Below, piece after piece: positions 1 through 11,942 of a stretch of 64,000 bases of DNA; positions within the stretch are counted from its first letter, which is position 1, and each line of letters begins with the position of its first letter. The stretch comes from Bacteroidota bacterium (lineage in GTDB: Bacteria > Bacteroidota > Bacteroidia > Chitinophagales > Chitinophagaceae). The notes beneath the pieces were generated by a model. That model made no database searches and had not been told where the DNA came from. It saw only the letters and a program-made list of their open reading frames with translations. Where the stretch lies: the NCBI GenBank assembly GCA_018266575.1, contig JAFEAE010000016.1, forward strand, positions 62,001-126,000. The letters run 5' to 3'. A program made the position numbers and the translations under genes.

Positions 1-198
1 AGCGAGATTGTTTATTCGGTACTGATGATGCAGCGTTCATTTATTGCGCCAAATATTAATTTTGAGAACCCGGATGAAGATTCTGCAAAACTGAATATTG
101 TAAAAAATACCATTGAAAAAAATATAAACGTAATTTTGTCGAATTCTTTTGGCTTTGGGGGAACCAACTCAACGCTTATTGTTCGAAAACTGACCTAA
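1..198 (+). CDS. Beta-ketoacyl-ACP synthase, C-terminal fragment (cut by window edge)
   Basis: The frame is open from the first base to TAA at 196-198 and gives the last 65 residues of a protein whose start lies outside the window. Near the end is NSFGFGGTNSTL, the glycine-rich loop that closes FabB/FabF-type condensing enzymes. The same loop recurs at the ends of the two complete ketosynthases at 2980 and 7966. An ACP gene follows after 11 bp, so it is probably the elongating condensing enzyme paired with that ACP. Whether it has the active-site Cys cannot be seen. Confidence 0.85.
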   Translation, partial: SEIVYSVLMMQRSFIAPNINFENPDEDSAKLNIVKNTIEKNINVILSNSFGFGGTNSTLIVRKLT

Positions 199-2979: not shown

Positions 2980-4116
2980 ATGATGAGTGAAGTATTTGTC
3001 GTTTCAGATAATATTATATCCCCGATGGGTTTTACTTCCGCAGAAAATATGCTGCGGCTAAAACAAAACCGATCGGGGATTGCTCTTCATGAGAATACTC
3101 ATTTCTCCCCTTCCCCGTTTTATGCCTCGTTGTTTGAGGATAATGCCGTTTTCCTAAAAGATAACAACAATGTCTACACGAAATTCGAACAATTATTGAT
3201 CGCATCAATAACAGATGGGCTGAAAAATACGGATATAGATCTCCGCAATAATAAAACTGTCTTGATTATTTCTTCCACAAAAGGAAATATCAGTTTAATA
3301 GAAACAGAAGCATTTAACAGGGAATTACAGGAACGTGTTTCCTTGCATGAATCTGCAAAACGTGTTGCTGCATATTTTGATCATCCTAATAAACATGTTA
3401 TTGTTTCAAATGCCTGCATTTCCGGAGTGCTTGCATTATTAACCGGAATGCGGTTGATACAATCGGGGCAATACGAAAATGCGATAGTTGCCGGTTGTGA
3501 CGTGATCACGAAATTCATACTATCCGGTTTTCAGTCGTTCATGGCCGTTAGTACGCAACCGTGCAAACCTTTTGACGCAGAAAGAGATGGCGTAACACTT
3601 GGCGAAGGCGCAGCAACGGTAATCCTTTCATCGAATAAAAAGTATGCTGATAAAATAAGATTAGCCGGTGGCTCTGTGAGCAATGATGCAAATCATATTT
3701 CAGGCCCTTCGCGTACAGGCGAAGAACTCGCATTGGCTATTAATAAAGCGTTGAAAAATGCAGGTGTTGCTGCAAGTGAAATTGATTTTATTTCTGCGCA
3801 CGGAACAGCAACTGTATATAATGATGAAATGGAAGCGAAAGCTATTTCATTGATGAATATGGAACGTGTTCCGGTGAATAGCCTGAAAGGAAACTACGGC
3901 CATACTTTAGGAGCTGCGGGTTTGATTGAATCTATAATCACCATTCATTCGTTGCAGGAAGATATTGTTTTACCAACAAAAAATTTTAACGAATCTGGCG
4001 TGTCGAAACCTATTAATATTTGCAGTACTTTGCAAAGCGCCGAATTAAAAAATGTATTGAAAACGGCTTCGGGTTTTGGCGGATGTAATGGAGCGGTGGT
4101 GTTTAGTAAGCCATGA
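2980..4116 (+). CDS. Beta-ketoacyl-ACP synthase (FabF/FabB-like)
   Basis: A 378-residue condensing enzyme with a complete Cys-His-His triad: Cys146 in SNACISGV, His274 in AHGTAT and His308 in GNYGHTLGAAG. It would condense malonyl-ACP with the growing chain. A second ATG directly follows the first (2983), so the start may be three bases later; an AGG-rich stretch precedes both. The stop TGA (4114-4116) is the first triplet of a short repeat that also occurs at the Crp-like gene (62878). Confidence 0.92.
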   Translation: MMSEVFVVSDNIISPMGFTSAENMLRLKQNRSGIALHENTHFSPSPFYASLFEDNAVFLKDNNNVYTKFEQLLIASITDGLKNTDIDLRNNKTVLIISSTKGNISLIETEAFNRELQERVSLHESAKRVAAYFDHPNKHVIVSNACISGVLALLTGMRLIQSGQYENAIVAGCDVITKFILSGFQSFMAVSTQPCKPFDAERDGVTLGEGAATVILSSNKKYADKIRLAGGSVSNDANHISGPSRTGEELALAINKALKNAGVAASEIDFISAHGTATVYNDEMEAKAISLMNMERVPVNSLKGNYGHTLGAAGLIESIITIHSLQEDIVLPTKNFNESGVSKPINICSTLQSAELKNVLKTASGFGGCNGAVVFSKP

Positions 4117-5795: not shown

Positions 5796-7055
5796 ATGAA
5801 CACTGAAAAAGTAGACGTATTAGTGATCGGTGCCGGTCCTGCAGGAACGGTTGCTGCTTCAATTGTAAACAAAGCAGGATATAAAGTAAAGATCGTGGAG
5901 AAAATGAAATTTCCCCGCTTTGTGATCGGTGAAAGCCTCCTGCCCCGTTGTATGGAAGCCTTGACTGAAGCGGGTTTCGTAGATGCAGTGAAAGGAAAGG
6001 GTTTCCAGGAAAAATCCGGAGCCAAGTTTGTGAAGAACGGAAAAATATGCGACTACTTCTTTGCCGACCAGTTCACGCCCGGATGGAACTGGACGTGGCA
6101 GGTTCCCCGCGGCGAGTTTGATAAAACATTAGCTGACACGGTTGAGCGCATGGGCGTTCCCGTTAGTTATGAAACAACGGTGACCGCAATTCAGTTCAAT
6201 GGTTCTGATTCGATGACAACTGTTGAAGATATCAATGGAAATAAATCACAAATAGAAGCACGTTTTATAATTGATGGAAGTGGCTATGGACGTGTCATCC
6301 CGCGATTGTTCAACCTCGACAAACCATCAAACCTTCCTCCACGTAAAGCAGTTTTCACGCACACCATAGATTTAAAACGATCTATGGCTGATGAGCCAAA
6401 CCGTATAACAATTGTTGTGCATAAAAAAGGAGTCTGGATCTGGATAATTCCGTTTTCCAGTGGCATTACTTCCCTTGGCTTTGTTGGCAATCCTGAATTT
6501 TTTGAGCAATACAAAGGAACATTGGACGAACAGTTGCGTGCATTGATAGCAGATGAACCTTATTTAAGTGAACGTTTTAAAGATGTGGAATTTGTTTTTG
6601 ATACCAAAGTGTTGCAATCCTGGTCGAGCACTACGGAGAAATTTTATGGGGAAGGTTTTGTGCTGACAGGAAATGTAACTGAGTTTTTGGATCCCGTGTT
6701 TTCTTCCGGAGTTACCCTGGCTACTGTTTCCAGCCAGATTGCAGGAAACCTGGTGATCAGAAAATTAAAAGGGGAAACTATTGATTGGGAAAAAGAATAC
6801 ACCGAACCAATGATGCAAGGCGTTGATACATTCCGATCTTATGTTAACGCATGGTATGATGGAACTTTAGATACCATTTTCTTTGCAGACGATCAGGATC
6901 TATTCATAAAAAGCCAGATATGCTCCGTACTCGCAGGTTATGTTTGGGATTTAAATAACCAGTATGTAAAGAATCATCAGACAGCACTAACTAAGCTTGC
7001 CACAATAATCGAATACCGGGACAGTTTTAAAAAACCAAAAACAACGAGCGCCTAA
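5796..7055 (+). CDS. FAD-dependent halogenase-like oxidoreductase
   Basis: A 419-residue flavoprotein with the N-terminal dinucleotide-binding motif GAGPAGTVAA (12-21), then FPRFVIGESLLP (39-50) and WQVPRGEFD (101-109). The WxWxIP signature of flavin-dependent halogenases is present as WIWIIP (214-219). Such enzymes use reduced FAD, chloride and oxygen to halogenate an aromatic ring; flexirubins can be chlorinated, which fits the cluster. It could instead be a geranylgeranyl-reductase-like oxidoreductase, since only motifs were read. The next gene starts 1 bp after the stop. Confidence 0.8.
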   Translation: MNTEKVDVLVIGAGPAGTVAASIVNKAGYKVKIVEKMKFPRFVIGESLLPRCMEALTEAGFVDAVKGKGFQEKSGAKFVKNGKICDYFFADQFTPGWNWTWQVPRGEFDKTLADTVERMGVPVSYETTVTAIQFNGSDSMTTVEDINGNKSQIEARFIIDGSGYGRVIPRLFNLDKPSNLPPRKAVFTHTIDLKRSMADEPNRITIVVHKKGVWIWIIPFSSGITSLGFVGNPEFFEQYKGTLDEQLRALIADEPYLSERFKDVEFVFDTKVLQSWSSTTEKFYGEGFVLTGNVTEFLDPVFSSGVTLATVSSQIAGNLVIRKLKGETIDWEKEYTEPMMQGVDTFRSYVNAWYDGTLDTIFFADDQDLFIKSQICSVLAGYVWDLNNQYVKNHQTALTKLATIIEYRDSFKKPKTTSA

Positions 7056-7056
7056 T

Positions 7057-7680
7057 TTGTACGTGTTGCAGGAAAACAACTATATAACATCAAGTTGCAG
7101 GATCAGCAATCATACTATCTATAAAAACGGAGGAAAAATATTTGAAGAAAAAAATATTGTTTTTGCTGATTTTTTGATAGCCGCTTACGCATATTTCAAC
7201 CTGAACTATCCGAAGTTTTATAAGATGGACAGCCTGAGTAAACTGGGCTGGCTCGCTTCGGAAATAGTATTGAAAGATACTTTTAAAGCCGAAAATTATA
7301 AACCTGCCGACGTCGGCATTGTGCTCGCAAATGCCAATTCCAGCCTGGATACAGACCTGAAATATTTCGAGAGCACGAAGGAATTTGCAAGCCCATCTTT
7401 ATTTGTGTATACGCTTCCGAACATTGTAATGGGCGAAATTTGCATACGTAACAAATTCAAAGGCGAGAACGCATTTTTTATACAGGAAAAATTTGATGCG
7501 GATTTTATTGAACAATATGTAAACAATCTTGTCAATAATAATATATTGCAGGCTTGTATCTGCGGATGGGTGGACGTTTTGCAGGAAGATTATGAAGCCC
7601 TATTGTTTTTAGTAGAAAAAAACAAAACGGAAAACGCAATTGCATTTAGCACTGCAAACATGAATGTGAAGAATCATTAA
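7057..7680 (+). CDS. Truncated, Cys-less ketosynthase-like protein
   Basis: A 207-residue protein, half the length of a ketosynthase. VYTLPNIVMGEICIRNKFKG (118-137) matches the helix before the nucleophilic elbow of condensing enzymes, but where the active-site Cys should follow it reads FFIQEKFDAD. It may act as a non-catalytic partner, like a chain-length factor. TTG at 7057 follows the halogenase stop by 1 bp; GTG at 7063 and TTG at 7066 are equally possible starts. It sits directly before an ACP and a full ketosynthase. Confidence 0.72.
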   Translation: MYVLQENNYITSSCRISNHTIYKNGGKIFEEKNIVFADFLIAAYAYFNLNYPKFYKMDSLSKLGWLASEIVLKDTFKAENYKPADVGIVLANANSSLDTDLKYFESTKEFASPSLFVYTLPNIVMGEICIRNKFKGENAFFIQEKFDADFIEQYVNNLVNNNILQACICGWVDVLQEDYEALLFLVEKNKTENAIAFSTANMNVKNH

Positions 7681-7699
7681 ATCAGAAAAATCAGGAGTA

Positions 7700-7963
7700 A
7701 TGGATACACTAATGACCGATTTGAAAAAACAAATTGTTGAACAATTGAATTTGCAGGATATAAAACCTGAAGATATCGGTGATGAACAACCTTTATTCAT
7801 AGAAGGATTGGGACTGGATTCGATCGATGCACTGGAACTGATCGTGTTGTTACAACAACAATACAAGATTAAACTGGCGAATGCAGAAGATGGTCCGAAA
7901 GTATTTTATTCTGTAAAAACAATGGCTGATTACATCCGTGCGAACCAGCCAAAGAACGCATAA
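7700..7963 (+). CDS. Acyl carrier protein
   Basis: An 87-residue ACP with GLGLDSIDALELIVLLQ; Ser41 is the phosphopantetheine site. The start may be the second Met (7712, MTDLKKQIVEQL), which gives a more usual N-terminus. The ketosynthase start follows 2 bp after the stop, which is tight coupling. Together with the ACP at 210 it gives the cluster two carrier proteins. Confidence 0.93.
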   Translation: MDTLMTDLKKQIVEQLNLQDIKPEDIGDEQPLFIEGLGLDSIDALELIVLLQQQYKIKLANAEDGPKVFYSVKTMADYIRANQPKNA

Positions 7964-7965
7964 CT

Positions 7966-9162
7966 ATGAGCGCACCTGTTTTTGTTGCAGGCATCGGGAT
8001 CATTACAGCTATTGGCGATAACATAGCGGAAAACCTTGCTGCGCTTGAATCCGGGCGTGCAGGAATGGGCGACATCACTTTTCTTGAAACTATCCATCAA
8101 AAAAAACTTCCGGTTGCTGAAGTAAAACATAATAACGATCAGCTTGCAGAAAAAGCCGGGTTATCCAATCAAATCAGCCGCACCGCATTGTTGAGTACAA
8201 TTGCCGCTGAAGAAGCAATAAAAGATGCCGGCATAAAGAATTTTTCTTCATTAAGAACAGGTTTTATTTCTGCGAATACAGTTGGCGGAATGGATAAAAC
8301 AGAAAATTTTTTCCGTGAGTTTTTACATGATAATCAAAAAGGAAAACTCAGAAATGTAGTCAATCACGAATGTGGCGCTGCTACAGAAATTACGGCAGAT
8401 AAACTCGGTATAAAAAATTATGTGAGCACGATCAGCACGGCATGTTCTTCTTCTGCCAATTCTATTTTTTTTGGTGCAAGGTTAATCAAACAAAATATGC
8501 TTGATGTGGTAGTTGCCGGGGGTGTTGATTCGTTGACAAAATTTACATTGAACGGTTTCAATACGTTGATGATTCTGGATAGTGAATTCTGCAAACCTTT
8601 TGACGAAAACCGCAGAGGATTGAATTTGGGTGAAGGTGCTGGTTATGTTGTTTTGGTTTCGGAAAAAGTTGCGGCTTCCTTATCAAGAAAACCCTATTGC
8701 AAACTGGCAGGATATGCCAATGCGAATGATGCCTATCATCAAACTGCTTCTTCTCCGGATGGAACAGGTTCCTATCTTGCAATGACAGGAGCATTGAAAG
8801 AAGCGAACCTGCAGGCTGCCGATATTGATTATATTAATTTACACGGAACAGGAACGCAGAATAATGATATTGCTGAAGGAACAGCGATTAAAAGATTGTT
8901 TGACCCGTCATTTCCGAAAATGAGTTCTACAAAATCTTTTACAGGGCATACATTAGGTGCGAGTGGAGGAATTGAAGCAGTGTTTTCTGTACTGGCAATT
9001 GAACATGGAATTATTTATCCTAACCTTCGCTTTCATACACAAATGAAAGAATTGCCTTTTGCTCCGGAAACAAAATTTTTGAAAGGCCAGAAACTAAATA
9101 ATGTATTATCAAATTCATTTGGGTTTGGAGGGAATTGTTCGTCGTTGATTTTTTCGAGGTGA
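7966..9162 (+). CDS. Beta-ketoacyl-ACP synthase II-like
   Basis: A 398-residue ketosynthase with a complete triad: Cys160 in STACSSSANS, His293 in LHGTGT and His328 in TGHTLGASGG. It lies 2 bp after an ACP and upstream of a Cys-less homologue (9489), an arrangement like KS-alpha and chain-length factor in type II polyketide systems. The stop TGA (9160-9162) is the first unit of a TGAATGG tandem repeat. Confidence 0.93.
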   Translation: MSAPVFVAGIGIITAIGDNIAENLAALESGRAGMGDITFLETIHQKKLPVAEVKHNNDQLAEKAGLSNQISRTALLSTIAAEEAIKDAGIKNFSSLRTGFISANTVGGMDKTENFFREFLHDNQKGKLRNVVNHECGAATEITADKLGIKNYVSTISTACSSSANSIFFGARLIKQNMLDVVVAGGVDSLTKFTLNGFNTLMILDSEFCKPFDENRRGLNLGEGAGYVVLVSEKVAASLSRKPYCKLAGYANANDAYHQTASSPDGTGSYLAMTGALKEANLQAADIDYINLHGTGTQNNDIAEGTAIKRLFDPSFPKMSSTKSFTGHTLGASGGIEAVFSVLAIEHGIIYPNLRFHTQMKELPFAPETKFLKGQKLNNVLSNSFGFGGNCSSLIFSR

Positions 9163-9185
9163 ATGGTGAATGGTGAATGGTGAAT
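9160..9185 (+). repeat. Heptamer tandem repeat TGAATGG overlapping a stop codon
   Basis: TGAATGG occurs three times in tandem followed by TGAAT, and the first TGA is the ketosynthase stop codon. The same words (GTGAATGGTGA) appear in the right arm of the element inside hemC (55746-55780), read on the other strand. Confidence 0.75.
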
Positions 9186-9228
9186 TTTAAGCTGATTAAA
9201 TATTAGTAAGAAAAAATAGGATTAAAGA

Positions 9229-9267
9229 AATCGTACATCGTACATCTCAAATCGTACATTTTTGAAA
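9229..9267 (+). repeat. ATCGTACAT direct repeat, upstream copy
   Basis: Its 3' half (CATCTCAAATCGTACAT, then TTTTGAAA) is identical to 9470-9494, about 227 bp downstream. This copy is followed by GATGGTC instead of the gene. Confidence 0.75.
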
Positions 9268-9309
9268 GATGGTCAGACAAAAATACGAGACTTGCGGAGA
9301 AACCTAAAG

Positions 9310-9351
9310 CTCGATAGAATTGATGCAGTACAAGAGTGCGACGCAAGAATG
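9310..9351 (+). repeat. Dispersed repeat, copy 2, no palindrome
   Basis: CTCGATAGAATT, then CAGTACAAGAGTGCGAC joined directly to GCAAGAATG. It shows the uninterrupted junction at the point where copies 1 and 3 carry the 20-bp palindrome. Confidence 0.75.
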
Positions 9352-9462
9352 CCGAAGGGAGAACAAATGCTGATAACAGAAAATAAAAAATAATTGATTA
9401 GAAAGGAAAGGTCGAATATAAGAAATCGTACATCCGAAATCGGATATCGTAAATTATTAACA

Positions 9463-9494
9463 CATCGTACATCTCAAATCGTACATTTTTGAAA
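9463..9494 (+). repeat. ATCGTACAT direct repeat supplying a start codon
   Basis: CATCGTACAT and AATCGTACAT lie just upstream, and the TTTTTGAAA that ends the repeat contains TTG 9489-9491, the likely start of the ketosynthase-like gene. No ATG is available near the family's expected N-terminus. Confidence 0.65.
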
Positions 9495-10547
9495 ATTTAC
9501 ATCACTGCAACTGGTAATGTGTCGCCGCAAAAAACTTTCGGCGATGTTCCGTTCCTGACGGAGCCGGCGAGTTATTCAGGTAACCGCCTCAGTTGCGTTG
9601 AACCGGATTATAAAGAATTTATTGATGTAAAGCTGATACGCCGCATGAGCCGCATTATTAAAATGGGTGTGGCTGCAGGTTTCGCTTGTTTGAAAGAGGC
9701 GAATGTGGAAATTCCCGATGCAATTATTACCGGCACTGCATACGGTTGTTTGGAAGACACCGGGATTTTTTTAACCAAAATGGTGGAACAGCATGAAGAA
9801 ATGCTTTCACCAACAGCATTTATTCAATCGACACATAATACAGTTGGTGCTCAAATCGCGTTGATGATGCATTGCCATAATTACAACAATACATTTGTAC
9901 ATCGAGGGTTTTCATTTGAAAGTGCACTGCTTGACGCCATATTATTATTGAATGAGGGAAAGGCATCGAATGTGCTTGTTGGTGGCGTCGATGAAATTAT
10001 TAATGCAAGTCATACATTGCTTTCACGATTCGGTTTATATAAGCGTGAAAAAAAATCAAATACTGAGCTTTATTCTTCAAAAACAAAAGGAACAATTGCC
10101 GGTGAAGGCGCCGCATTTTTTTTATTATCGGGAGAATATAACGGAAATGATTATGCGGAGTTGCGTGCAATGACAACTTTTTACAAACCGGCCAACGAAA
10201 AAGAGATCGAAGAACAGATTCTATCTTTTTTAGAAGCACAGTCTGTAAATATTGCCGAAATAGATCTGGTAATTACGGGAAGAAACGGAGATAATAAAAA
10301 TGATGAAATTTATAATAGATTAGATAAATCTGTTTTCAAAAATATTGATACCGTTAATTACAAACATTTGTGCGGGGAATACCCTACTTCTTCAGCATTT
10401 GCATTGTGGCTTGCCGCAAACATTATTAAGAGAAATGAAATTCCGCCGGTAACCGGTTCTTTTAAAAAAGGAAAGATCAAAACTGTGCTGGTATATAATA
10501 ATTATCTCGGCATTCATCATTCATTATTTTTGTTATCTGCATGTTGA
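9489..10547 (+). CDS. Cys-less ketosynthase-like protein (chain-length-factor-like)
   Basis: A 352-residue protein that starts MKIYITATGNVSP, a typical ketosynthase N-terminus, if the TTG at 9489 is used. FIQSTHNTVGAQIAL (111-125) is the helix before the nucleophile; the following segment reads NTFVHRGFSFES, with no Cys at the active site. GEGAAFFLL and later motifs keep the fold. It is probably the non-catalytic partner of the ketosynthase at 7966. It overlaps the next gene by 7 bp. Confidence 0.82.
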   Translation: MKIYITATGNVSPQKTFGDVPFLTEPASYSGNRLSCVEPDYKEFIDVKLIRRMSRIIKMGVAAGFACLKEANVEIPDAIITGTAYGCLEDTGIFLTKMVEQHEEMLSPTAFIQSTHNTVGAQIALMMHCHNYNNTFVHRGFSFESALLDAILLLNEGKASNVLVGGVDEIINASHTLLSRFGLYKREKKSNTELYSSKTKGTIAGEGAAFFLLSGEYNGNDYAELRAMTTFYKPANEKEIEEQILSFLEAQSVNIAEIDLVITGRNGDNKNDEIYNRLDKSVFKNIDTVNYKHLCGEYPTSSAFALWLAANIIKRNEIPPVTGSFKKGKIKTVLVYNNYLGIHHSLFLLSAC

Positions 10548-11314
10548 ATTTCAGGAATACAACTGTTTTATTTGTGTTGCTGCTCGTCGTTTTGATGGTG
10601 CTGAATTTTTACATGCACATCCCTGTTTTTATTTACATAGCGCTGGCATTGATCTATTCCTTTATACTTTTCCTCGGAAGTTATTTTATACAGTTGAATT
10701 TTTACATCAAAGCGATTTGTAAAAGTGAAACAACTAAAAAAGAAATTGCACTGAGTTTTGATGACGGCCCTGCTGTTTCATTTTCTCCTGAGATTTTAAA
10801 TGTGTTAGAAGAGCATAATGTTAAAGTTGCTTTTTTCTGCATTGGCAACCGCATCGAAGGGAATGAAAAAATTGTTCGTGATATGTATGAGCAAGGCCAC
10901 GTGATCGGCAACCATAGTTTTTCGCATCATTTCTGGTTCGATCTTTTTTCATCCAAAAAAATGCTGGCAGATATGAAGCAGATGAATGAAAGAATGAAAG
11001 ATGTTATTGGAGTCGCACCAAAATTATTTCGTCCGCCTTATGGTGTTACCAACCCGAATTTGAAAAAAGCTATTATAAAAGGAGATTATACGACGATCGG
11101 ATGGAATGTCCGTAGCATGGATACTGTAATTAATGATGAAAAAAAACTGGTTGAAAAAATGAAGAAGGCAATTTCCCCCGGAGCAATTATTTTATTTCAC
11201 GATACAAGTAAAACCACATTGAATATTCTACCTGAGTTTATCAAATATGTTAAAGCTGAAGGCTACTCTATAACACGATTGGATAAAATGCTTAACTTGA
11301 ATCCGTATGCGTAA
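10541..11314 (+). CDS. NodB-type polysaccharide deacetylase, membrane-anchored
   Basis: A 257-residue protein with hydrophobic N-terminal segments (about 8-50), then a NodB domain: SFDDGP (motif 1), GNHSFSH (metal-binding histidines), RPPYG (motif 3) and ILFHD (motif 5). The family removes acetyl groups from N-acetylated sugars by metal-dependent hydrolysis at the cell surface. Its role in a polyene cluster is unclear; it may act on a head group or linker. It overlaps both neighbours (7 bp and 8 bp), so it belongs to the operon. Confidence 0.85.
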   Translation: MLNFRNTTVLFVLLLVVLMVLNFYMHIPVFIYIALALIYSFILFLGSYFIQLNFYIKAICKSETTKKEIALSFDDGPAVSFSPEILNVLEEHNVKVAFFCIGNRIEGNEKIVRDMYEQGHVIGNHSFSHHFWFDLFSSKKMLADMKQMNERMKDVIGVAPKLFRPPYGVTNPNLKKAIIKGDYTTIGWNVRSMDTVINDEKKLVEKMKKAISPGAIILFHDTSKTTLNILPEFIKYVKAEGYSITRLDKMLNLNPYA

Positions 11315-11942
11315 TTATTTGTTTTTAATAACGATGATTGTATTGTGCAAAGCCGCATCAGCACAATATCCCGGCTATTCCCGCATAACCGATATTACAA
11401 AATTCAAAGAAACATTTTCTGCTGCATCGCAAAAAATAGCTTCTATAAAAAGTGATTTTGTACAGGAGAAAAACCTGAGCATGTTGTCGGAAAAAATCAC
11501 ATCAAAAGGAAAGTTCTGGTTCAAGAAAGATAACCTTGTACGCATGGAATACAACCAGCCTTTTCAATACCTGATGATCATTAATAAAAACAATGTGTTC
11601 ATTAAAGACGGGCAAAAAGAAAATAAAGTTTCTACAACATCAAACAAATTATTTCAACAGATCAACAAAATAACTGTTGATTGTGTGCAAGGCACAGCAC
11701 TGGATAATACCGATTTTAAATTCTCCGTTTTTGAGAATGAAAAAAATTATCTCGTAGAATTAATCCCCGTTGCCAAAAACCTGAAAGAGTATTTTAAGAG
11801 CATTAATATTTTTGTTGATAAAAAAGATTATTCCGTGAACAAGTTGGATATGCGGGAGCTTTCCGGCGATAATACGGTGATTAGTTTCATCAATAAAGAA
11901 CTGAACGTAACCATTCCTGATGCGCAATTTGCTATACATTAG
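11307..11942 (+). CDS. LolA-like outer-membrane carrier protein
   Basis: A 211-residue protein with a signal peptide (MRNYLFLITMIVLCKAASAQ) and a LolA-type body: FVQEKNLSMLSEKITSKGKFWFKK and NLVRMEYNQPF are the first strands of the half-barrel. LolA-like proteins carry a hydrophobic cargo across the periplasm. In aryl-polyene clusters this gene is normally present and is presumed to carry the pigment lipid to the outer membrane. It overlaps its neighbours by 8 and 23 bp. Confidence 0.85.
   Translation: MRNYLFLITMIVLCKAASAQYPGYSRITDITKFKETFSAASQKIASIKSDFVQEKNLSMLSEKITSKGKFWFKKDNLVRMEYNQPFQYLMIINKNNVFIKDGQKENKVSTTSNKLFQQINKITVDCVQGTALDNTDFKFSVFENEKNYLVELIPVAKNLKEYFKSINIFVDKKDYSVNKLDMRELSGDNTVISFINKELNVTIPDAQFAIH

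What the first reader, a model, noticed from the sequence alone, without database searches (positions are those of the whole stretch)
7057..10547. Two different Cys-less ketosynthase-like partners in one cluster
The 207-residue protein at 7057 keeps only the N-terminal half of a ketosynthase and reads QEKFDAD where the Cys belongs; the 352-residue protein at 9489 reads VHRGFSF there. Both lie beside the intact enzyme at 7966. A full-length and a half-length non-catalytic partner may form a trimeric or alternative complex that sets chain length.
Basis: partly seen in the sequence, partly recalled or inferred. Interest (0 to 1): 0.56.

Follow-up and report, generated by a model that had tools for sequence, protein, structure and literature searches.

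The report
Two non-catalytic ketosynthase partners, flexirubin cluster
A bacterial pigment gene cluster of the flexirubin type carries two different inactive relatives of its chain-building enzyme, one full-length and one half-length; the half-length one is intact and conserved in related clusters and in some species is fused to one or the other of two active enzymes, so it is probably a structural partner that shapes how the pigment chain is built.

Summary
The window opens inside a flexirubin (aryl-polyene) cluster. The 207-aa protein (7057) corresponds by gene order to FlxL and the 352-aa protein (9489) to FlxO of Chitinophaga pinensis; a 2014 paper lists both as putative ketosynthases (KS). 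FlxO lacks the Cys and both His and is the chain-length-factor (CLF) partner of the intact KS FlxN (7966). FlxL is not debris: 185 of 187 loci carry it full-length in one frame, none of 187 has the Cys, and its AlphaFold model (pLDDT 93) is the N-terminal half of a KS, nearest by sequence profile to CLFs. Half-size CLFs are known (ApeC), but here it is FlxO, not FlxL, that is detectably related to ApeC. FlxL, FlxI (a second intact KS, 2980) and FlxO occur in the same 34 of 395 phylum genomes. FlxL is fused to the C-terminus of FlxI in 2 loci and to the N-terminus of FlxN in 4. I read FlxL as a half-size, CLF-like subunit of a second KS pair, most likely with FlxI, held close to FlxN-FlxO. Trimer formation and chain-length control remain untested; coevolution was inconclusive. 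New variant of a known kind.

The parts
1..183 (+). 3' end of FlxC-type ketosynthase (whole gene L031:10978-12198), ApeR-like
   Evidence: FlxC HMM vs E. coli ApeR 281 bits
210..467 (+). acyl carrier protein (FlxD position)
   Evidence: PP-binding
2980..4116 (+). FlxI-type ketosynthase, Cys-His-His intact, ApeO-like; candidate catalytic partner of FlxL
   Evidence: fused to FlxL in L142 and L143
4573..5649 (+). O-methyltransferase (FlxJ position)
5796..7055 (+). FAD-dependent / tryptophan-halogenase-like protein (FlxK position)
7057..7680 (+). FlxL: half-length, Cys-less KS/CLF-like protein, 207 aa
7700..7963 (+). acyl carrier protein (FlxM position), between FlxL and FlxN
   Evidence: PF00550, NF006617 75.6 bits over cut-off 70
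7966..9162 (+). FlxN: intact ketosynthase, ApeO-like
9163..9488 (.). intergenic stretch FlxN-FlxO with two exact copies of a 33-nt repeat; the second runs into the TTG start of FlxO
9489..10547 (+). FlxO: full-length Cys-less, His-less chain-length factor related to ApeC
   Evidence: PF13723 44.3 bits; 6qsp_B E 3.7e-4
10541..11314 (+). polysaccharide deacetylase (FlxP position)
11307..11942 (+). LolA-like carrier

Best explanation
The cluster makes a flexirubin-type aryl polyene. FlxN (7966) and FlxO (9489) are the elongating KS-CLF heterodimer, the counterpart of ApeO-ApeC. FlxL (7057) is a second, half-size, catalytically dead CLF-like subunit: it keeps the N-terminal thiolase lobe with the conserved SPxxFVYTLPN segment that in ketosynthase dimers lies at the dimer contact and pocket wall (recalled), and has lost the catalytic Cys and nearly all of the C-terminal lobe. 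It completes a second KS heterodimer, most likely with FlxI (2980), and this pair works next to FlxN-FlxO; by shaping the partner's acyl pocket it would tune which chain lengths are extended or released. Shown: fold (by prediction), loss of catalytic residues, conservation, co-occurrence, gene order, fusions. Inferred: which KS it binds, and the role in chain length.
For: Fold and descent: AF2 pLDDT 93.4; Foldseek ranks CLFs on top (AntDE entry chains of 347-355 residues, ishigamide CLF 6kxd_B, actinorhodin CLF 1tqy_B; ApeC 6qsp_B E 3.1e-5 at rank 26); the FlxL profile's best PDB match by sequence is the ishigamide CLF 6kxd_B, E 9e-4; hhalign puts FlxO nearest (E 0.0017) ahead of FlxN (0.029), FlxC (0.062), FlxI (0.17). 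Retention: full-length in 185 of 187 loci; FlxL, FlxI and FlxO in exactly the same 34 of 395 phylum genomes, including G063, where the three lie about 100-400 kb apart on one contig. Pairing: order I..L..N..O on one strand wherever found; N-O gap at most 150 nt in 167 of 172 loci, I-L gap at most 150 nt in 83 of 173; the order KS then CLF would hold for both pairs. FlxI-FlxL fusion in L142 and L143. KS2 and CLF2 nest in the FlxN and FlxO clades of the tree, so that pair duplicated as a unit, and the own-genome copy has no FlxL. Rate correlation: FlxL tracks FlxI (partial r 0.28-0.45) and FlxN (0.31-0.44), FlxO less (0.02-0.19), control genes FlxH and FlxP -0.07 to 0.08 (126 loci).
Against: FlxL is fused to FlxN, not FlxI, in four loci (L062, L071, L072, L203), and in L133 FlxL stays with FlxM-FlxN-FlxO with no FlxI in the fetched stretch. 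Fusions join neighbours and need not show binding. The rate signal depends on the distance range (in one search over the whole range FlxL-FlxO 0.24 equals FlxL-FlxI 0.26) and neighbours such as FlxO-FlxP reach 0.37, so it may be adjacency. Direct-coupling analysis on 156 loci (Neff about 140) did not separate any pair; the positive control FlxN-FlxO did not stand out. VIA-align ranks catalytic FabF chains as high as or higher than CLFs, and FlxL is least like FlxI by profile. No complex was modelled for FlxI-FlxL, and nothing here measures chain length.
Confidence: 0.5

Rival explanations
1. FlxL is a partner of FlxN, either exchanging with FlxO (two alternative heterodimers) or adding to FlxN-FlxO as a third subunit.
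For: In-frame FlxL-FlxN fusions of 607-616 aa in L062, L071, L072, L203. The AF2 model of the natural fusion L062 has pLDDT 88.6 and pTM 0.80; by my own arithmetic a freely floating 208-residue half would hold pTM near 0.69 or less, so some defined packing is suggested. FlxL-FlxN has the highest or near-highest partial rate correlation.
Against: FlxN already has FlxO, with which it is adjacent and duplicates. The four fusions are 71-76% identical to one another and may be one event. No PAE or coordinates were available, so the contact itself was not seen. Only seven rows of that alignment span both halves, four of them made by reading a stop codon through.
Confidence: 0.27
2. FlxL is simply the flexirubin ApeC, an ordinary half-size CLF already known from aryl-polyene clusters.
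For: Same size class (207 vs 239-240 aa), one thiolase lobe, Cys-less, Foldseek match to ApeC chain 6qsp_B E 3.1e-5; [quoted passage not shown]
Against: No sequence link: FlxL HMM vs E. coli ApeC E 0.24, hhalign probability 0.3%, while FlxO vs ApeC gives E 9.9e-9 and 80%. 0 of 28 FlxL members match PF13723 at E<=1, 13 match PF00109; FlxO matches PF13723.
Confidence: 0.08
3. FlxL is not a KS partner but a binding or scaffold subunit, for example holding an acyl carrier protein or the aryl starter near the KSs.
For: A carrier-protein gene (FlxM) lies between FlxL and FlxN in many loci; invariant K-M-D and Y-T-L-x-N residues could be a docking surface; it has no catalytic residues.
Against: Its most conserved stretch is the one KSs use at the dimer interface (recalled), and the fold keeps the whole KS N-lobe.
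Confidence: 0.13
4. FlxL is a decaying remnant of a ketosynthase.
For: It lost half the KS and the active site.
Against: 185 of 187 loci full-length, 20 columns at 97% identity or more, kept in every one of 34 genomes that keep FlxI and FlxO, even where the cluster is scattered.
Confidence: 0.02

Closest known systems
ApeO-ApeC, KS-CLF heterodimer of aryl-polyene synthesis (Xenorhabdus doucetiae 6QSP; Acinetobacter baumannii)
   Same: An intact KS pairs with a Cys-less CLF of about half length with one thiolase fold (PMC8358021 passages). FlxN is ApeO-like (254 bits) and FlxO ApeC-like. FlxO keeps an Arg-Arg pair in 172 of 172 that by eye sits where ApeC has its two conserved Arg.
   Different: In flexirubin clusters the ApeC relative FlxO is full-length, and the half-length protein FlxL is a different, additional family with an additional KS, FlxI. 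FlxL has Y/F/H-K in place of Arg-Arg (by eye).
flx cluster of Chitinophaga pinensis (Schoner et al. 2014, PMC3992019)
   Same: Same gene order; the paper lists FlxC, FlxI, FlxL, FlxN, FlxO as putative ketosynthases (passages).
   Different: The passages seen call all five ketosynthases for chain elongation; none says that FlxL and FlxO lack the active site or that FlxL is half-length. The supplementary tables were not seen.
Full-length CLFs of type II polyketide synthases (actinorhodin KS-CLF 1TQY, ishigamide 6KXD, AntDE 6SMO/6SMP)
   Same: FlxO has the same design; the FlxL profile and model match these CLF chains best by E-value.
   Different: FlxL has only the N-terminal lobe; the residue at the Cys site varies, mostly G/A/S in FlxO and many residues in FlxL, not the fixed Gln of actinorhodin-type CLFs (recalled).
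E. coli aryl-polyene cluster of CFT073
   Same: ApeR for initiation, ApeO-ApeC for elongation (PMC8253772 passages); FlxC matches ApeR 281 bits.
   Different: Two KSs plus one half-size CLF there, three KSs plus two CLF-like proteins here; no FlxL-like ORF in the cluster stretch searched (best E 0.51).

Membership tests
KS/thiolase superfamily, N-terminal lobe (FlxL) | KS N-lobe fold | tested here: met
   AF2 pLDDT 93.4, pTM 0.90; VIA Z 16.6, 199 of 207 aligned to FabF 1j3n, 3.6 A; 13 of 28 members match PF00109 at E<=1
Chain-length factor (FlxO) | KS fold family without the catalytic Cys | tested here: met
   0 of 84 Cys, 0 of 172
Chain-length factor (FlxO) | encoded beside its KS | tested here: met
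   N-O gap -60 to 150 nt in 167 of 172 loci; in the window itself the gap is 326 nt
Chain-length factor (FlxO) | relationship to a proven CLF | tested here: met
   FlxO vs ApeC hmmsearch E 9.9e-9, hhalign 80%; PF13723 44.3 bits, cut-off 25
ApeC-type half-size CLF (FlxL) | half length, one thiolase lobe, no Cys | tested here: met
ApeC-type half-size CLF (FlxL) | sequence relationship to ApeC / PF13723 | tested here: not met
   FlxL HMM vs ApeC E 0.24; hhalign 0.3%; 0 of 28 match PF13723
ApeC-type half-size CLF (FlxL) | conserved Arg-Arg ACP-facing pair | tested here: not met
   FlxL keeps Lys-Met-Asp there (position matched by eye)
ApeC-type half-size CLF (FlxL) | physical heterodimer with an ApeO-type KS | not testable with these tools
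   Only indirect: fusions, pTM 0.80 of the fused model
Flexirubin biosynthesis cluster | aromatic amino-acid lyase, KR, KSs, ACPs, thioesterase, methyltransferase, LolA, deacetylase in flx order | tested here: met
   order as in PMC3992019
Flexirubin biosynthesis cluster | product is a flexirubin | not testable with these tools
   no chemistry

The most novel reading that the evidence does not exclude
FlxL bridges two catalytic ketosynthases: a FlxI-FlxL-FlxN(-FlxO) assembly in which one half-size dead lobe contacts both KSs, so that two different elongating sites with two different pocket-shaping partners hand the growing polyene from one to the other. Fusions on both sides of FlxL and its rate correlation with both KSs but less with FlxO fit this.
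Probability: 0.2. Interest if true: 0.72.

Novelty: new variant of a known kind. Interest (0 to 1): 0.45.

Why it matters
How aryl polyenes and flexirubins get their length is not settled. The cluster offers an unusual natural experiment: one KS with a full-length CLF, a second KS with a half-size CLF-like protein of separate descent, natural fusions on either side, and a second KS-CLF pair in the same genome without the half protein. If FlxL is the pocket wall of FlxI, flexirubin synthesis uses two KS heterodimers in series, which would explain the second set of genes and give two independent handles on polyene length.

Tried and rejected
Single-sequence searches with FlxL found nothing useful; only profiles and the fold did. 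Direct-coupling analysis between FlxL, FlxI, FlxN, FlxO: no pair separated from the others, positive control included; inconclusive. Distance partial correlation: suggestive, but range-dependent and confounded by adjacency. A first fused alignment put the FlxL rows onto FlxN; replaced by A4 after checking. ApeC does not appear by name in the VIA rows (one chain shown per entry); this excludes nothing. G003 has FlxO but its contig ends in FlxM, so its lack of FlxL says nothing. Fourteen of 187 loci show no FlxI in the stretch: L101, L108 and L127 lie at contig starts, L133 was read and has none upstream, L148 has it about 400 kb away (G063), the other nine were not followed. Pseudogene idea rejected by conservation. 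Trimer not testable.
Full report
What is there. The window is part of contig C7 of its genome. Reading upstream and through the first 13 kb gives: aromatic amino-acid lyase, ketoreductase, KS, ACP, acyltransferase, FabZ-like dehydratase, a protein without family, thioesterase, KS (2980), O-methyltransferase, FAD/halogenase-like protein, the 207-aa protein (7057), ACP, KS (7966), the 352-aa protein (9489), polysaccharide deacetylase, LolA. This is the order described for flxA to flxP of Chitinophaga pinensis in the passages I read of PMC3992019. By position 7057 is FlxL and 9489 is FlxO; the paper names both among five putative ketosynthases. I use those names by position; the C. pinensis type-strain sequence itself was not compared.

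Catalytic residues. In an alignment of all KS-like ORFs from the collected loci, FlxC, FlxI and FlxN keep Cys-His-His (FlxC 32 of 32, FlxI 83 of 83, FlxN 90 of 90 with one gap at the last His). FlxO has lost all three. FlxL has lost the Cys and ends before the second His (the window's own genes are counted twice, and FlxN/FlxO include second-copy pairs). In 187 loci FlxL never has Cys there; in 172 FlxO never.

FlxL is a real, old family. A profile search found it in 34 of 395 genomes spread over the phylum at E below 1e-40; the other 47 genomes with a match in that call have only weak ones (E 3e-7 and above), in open frames of 415-491 aa, the size of full KSs. In the same 395 genomes FlxI (34) and FlxO (34) occur in exactly the same genomes (lists compared). 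In G063 the three genes are scattered along one contig, yet all are kept. Over 187 loci (186 distinct FlxL sequences), 185 have FlxL full-length in one ORF; L074 is cut by a contig end and L202 has the match in two pieces. So it is neither absent nor broken.

Fold. AF2 with 80 rows gives pLDDT 93.4 and pTM 0.90. Foldseek's leading matches are mostly CLF chains (AntDE, ishigamide, actinorhodin; that the shorter AntDE chains are the CLF is recalled), with FabF close behind and ApeC (6qsp_B) at rank 26. VIA-align ranks FabFs and CLFs together at Z 15-16.6 over about 190-203 of 207 residues. By sequence profile the best PDB match is the ishigamide CLF, E 9e-4, and among the cluster's own proteins FlxO is nearest, weakly (E 0.0017). 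So FlxL is a half KS, CLF-like by profile; the link to CLFs rather than KSs is modest.

Who is who against the aryl-polyene system. With profiles from the seeds and E. coli APE proteins (ApeR, ApeO, ApeC assigned by me from the record's product names and order): FlxC-ApeR 281 bits, FlxN-ApeO 254, FlxI-ApeO 199, FlxO-ApeC E 9.9e-9 (hhalign 80%), FlxL-ApeC not detectable. FlxO also scores against ApeR and ApeO (E 3.9e-14 and 1.4e-7), as expected of a KS relative. No FlxL-like ORF was found in the E. coli APE stretch. In a tree of 65 rows FlxI and FlxN group with ApeO, FlxC lies apart, and a second KS-CLF pair (KS2, CLF2) nests in FlxN and FlxO respectively (quick method, ApeO_Ec a long branch). 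The own genome has such a second pair on C14 beside a KAS III-like protein and ABC-transporter genes, and no second FlxL. This supports FlxN-FlxO as a unit that works without FlxL elsewhere.

Fusions. FlxL is joined in frame to the N-terminus of FlxN in L062, L071, L072 and L203 (607-616 aa; 71-76% identical to each other), and to the C-terminus of FlxI in L142 and L143 (601 and 597 aa; 38% identical). So either neighbour can carry it. Gene order is always I, L, N, O on one strand where found.

Attempts to tell the partner. The natural FlxL-FlxN fusion was modelled: pLDDT 88.6, pTM 0.80, suggesting a defined placement of the two parts, but no PAE or coordinates were available. Coupling analysis failed its positive control. 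Partial rate correlations link FlxL with FlxI and FlxN about equally, with FlxO less and with control genes FlxH and FlxP hardly; adjacency can explain part of this, and over the whole distance range the FlxO value equals the FlxI value.

Reading. Two KSs of ApeO type (FlxI, FlxN) and two dead CLF-like proteins (FlxL, FlxO) stand in the order KS-CLF, ACP, KS-CLF. The simplest mechanism is two KS heterodimers, FlxI-FlxL and FlxN-FlxO, with FlxC as an ApeR-like KS (initiating in the Xenorhabdus system in vitro according to passages of PMC8253772). FlxL would act as pocket wall and dimer partner. That FlxL binds FlxN instead, or both, is open and is the more novel reading.

What is in print. Searches of the open-access library for flexirubin with ketosynthase, chain length factor, FlxL, heterodimer and aryl polyene listed no paper whose title or abstract start describes FlxL as a half-size non-catalytic partner; only passages of PMC3992019, PMC8358021, PMC8253772 and PMC9248904 were read. 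The Xenorhabdus primary paper (JACS) is not held.

Noticed in passing
window 9235-9267 and 9462-9494: Two exact copies of a 33-nt unit lie in the unusually long (326 nt) FlxN-FlxO gap, and the second copy contains the TTG start codon of FlxO. A 25-nt core pattern with up to 3 mismatches has 82 places in this genome (41 on each strand) and 0 for the reversed control, so it is an interspersed high-copy repeat.
   Followed up: partly
L144:5819-13664 (G000:C14): A second ACP-KS-CLF set (KS 48% identical to FlxN, CLF 39% to FlxO) without FlxL, near a KAS III-like protein and ABC-transporter genes.
   Followed up: partly
L118, L123, L130 and L119: Two FlxN-FlxO pairs accompany a single FlxL in some Bacteroidales-labelled loci; in L118, L123 and L130 they are in tandem.
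   Followed up: no
L133 and L148: Broken-up clusters: FlxL stays with FlxM-FlxN-FlxO without FlxI in L133, and with FlxJ-FlxK alone in L148.
   Followed up: partly
window 2980-4116: FlxI is an intact but divergent KS with a shorter stretch before the active-site helix than FlxN; its task is unassigned.
   Followed up: partly
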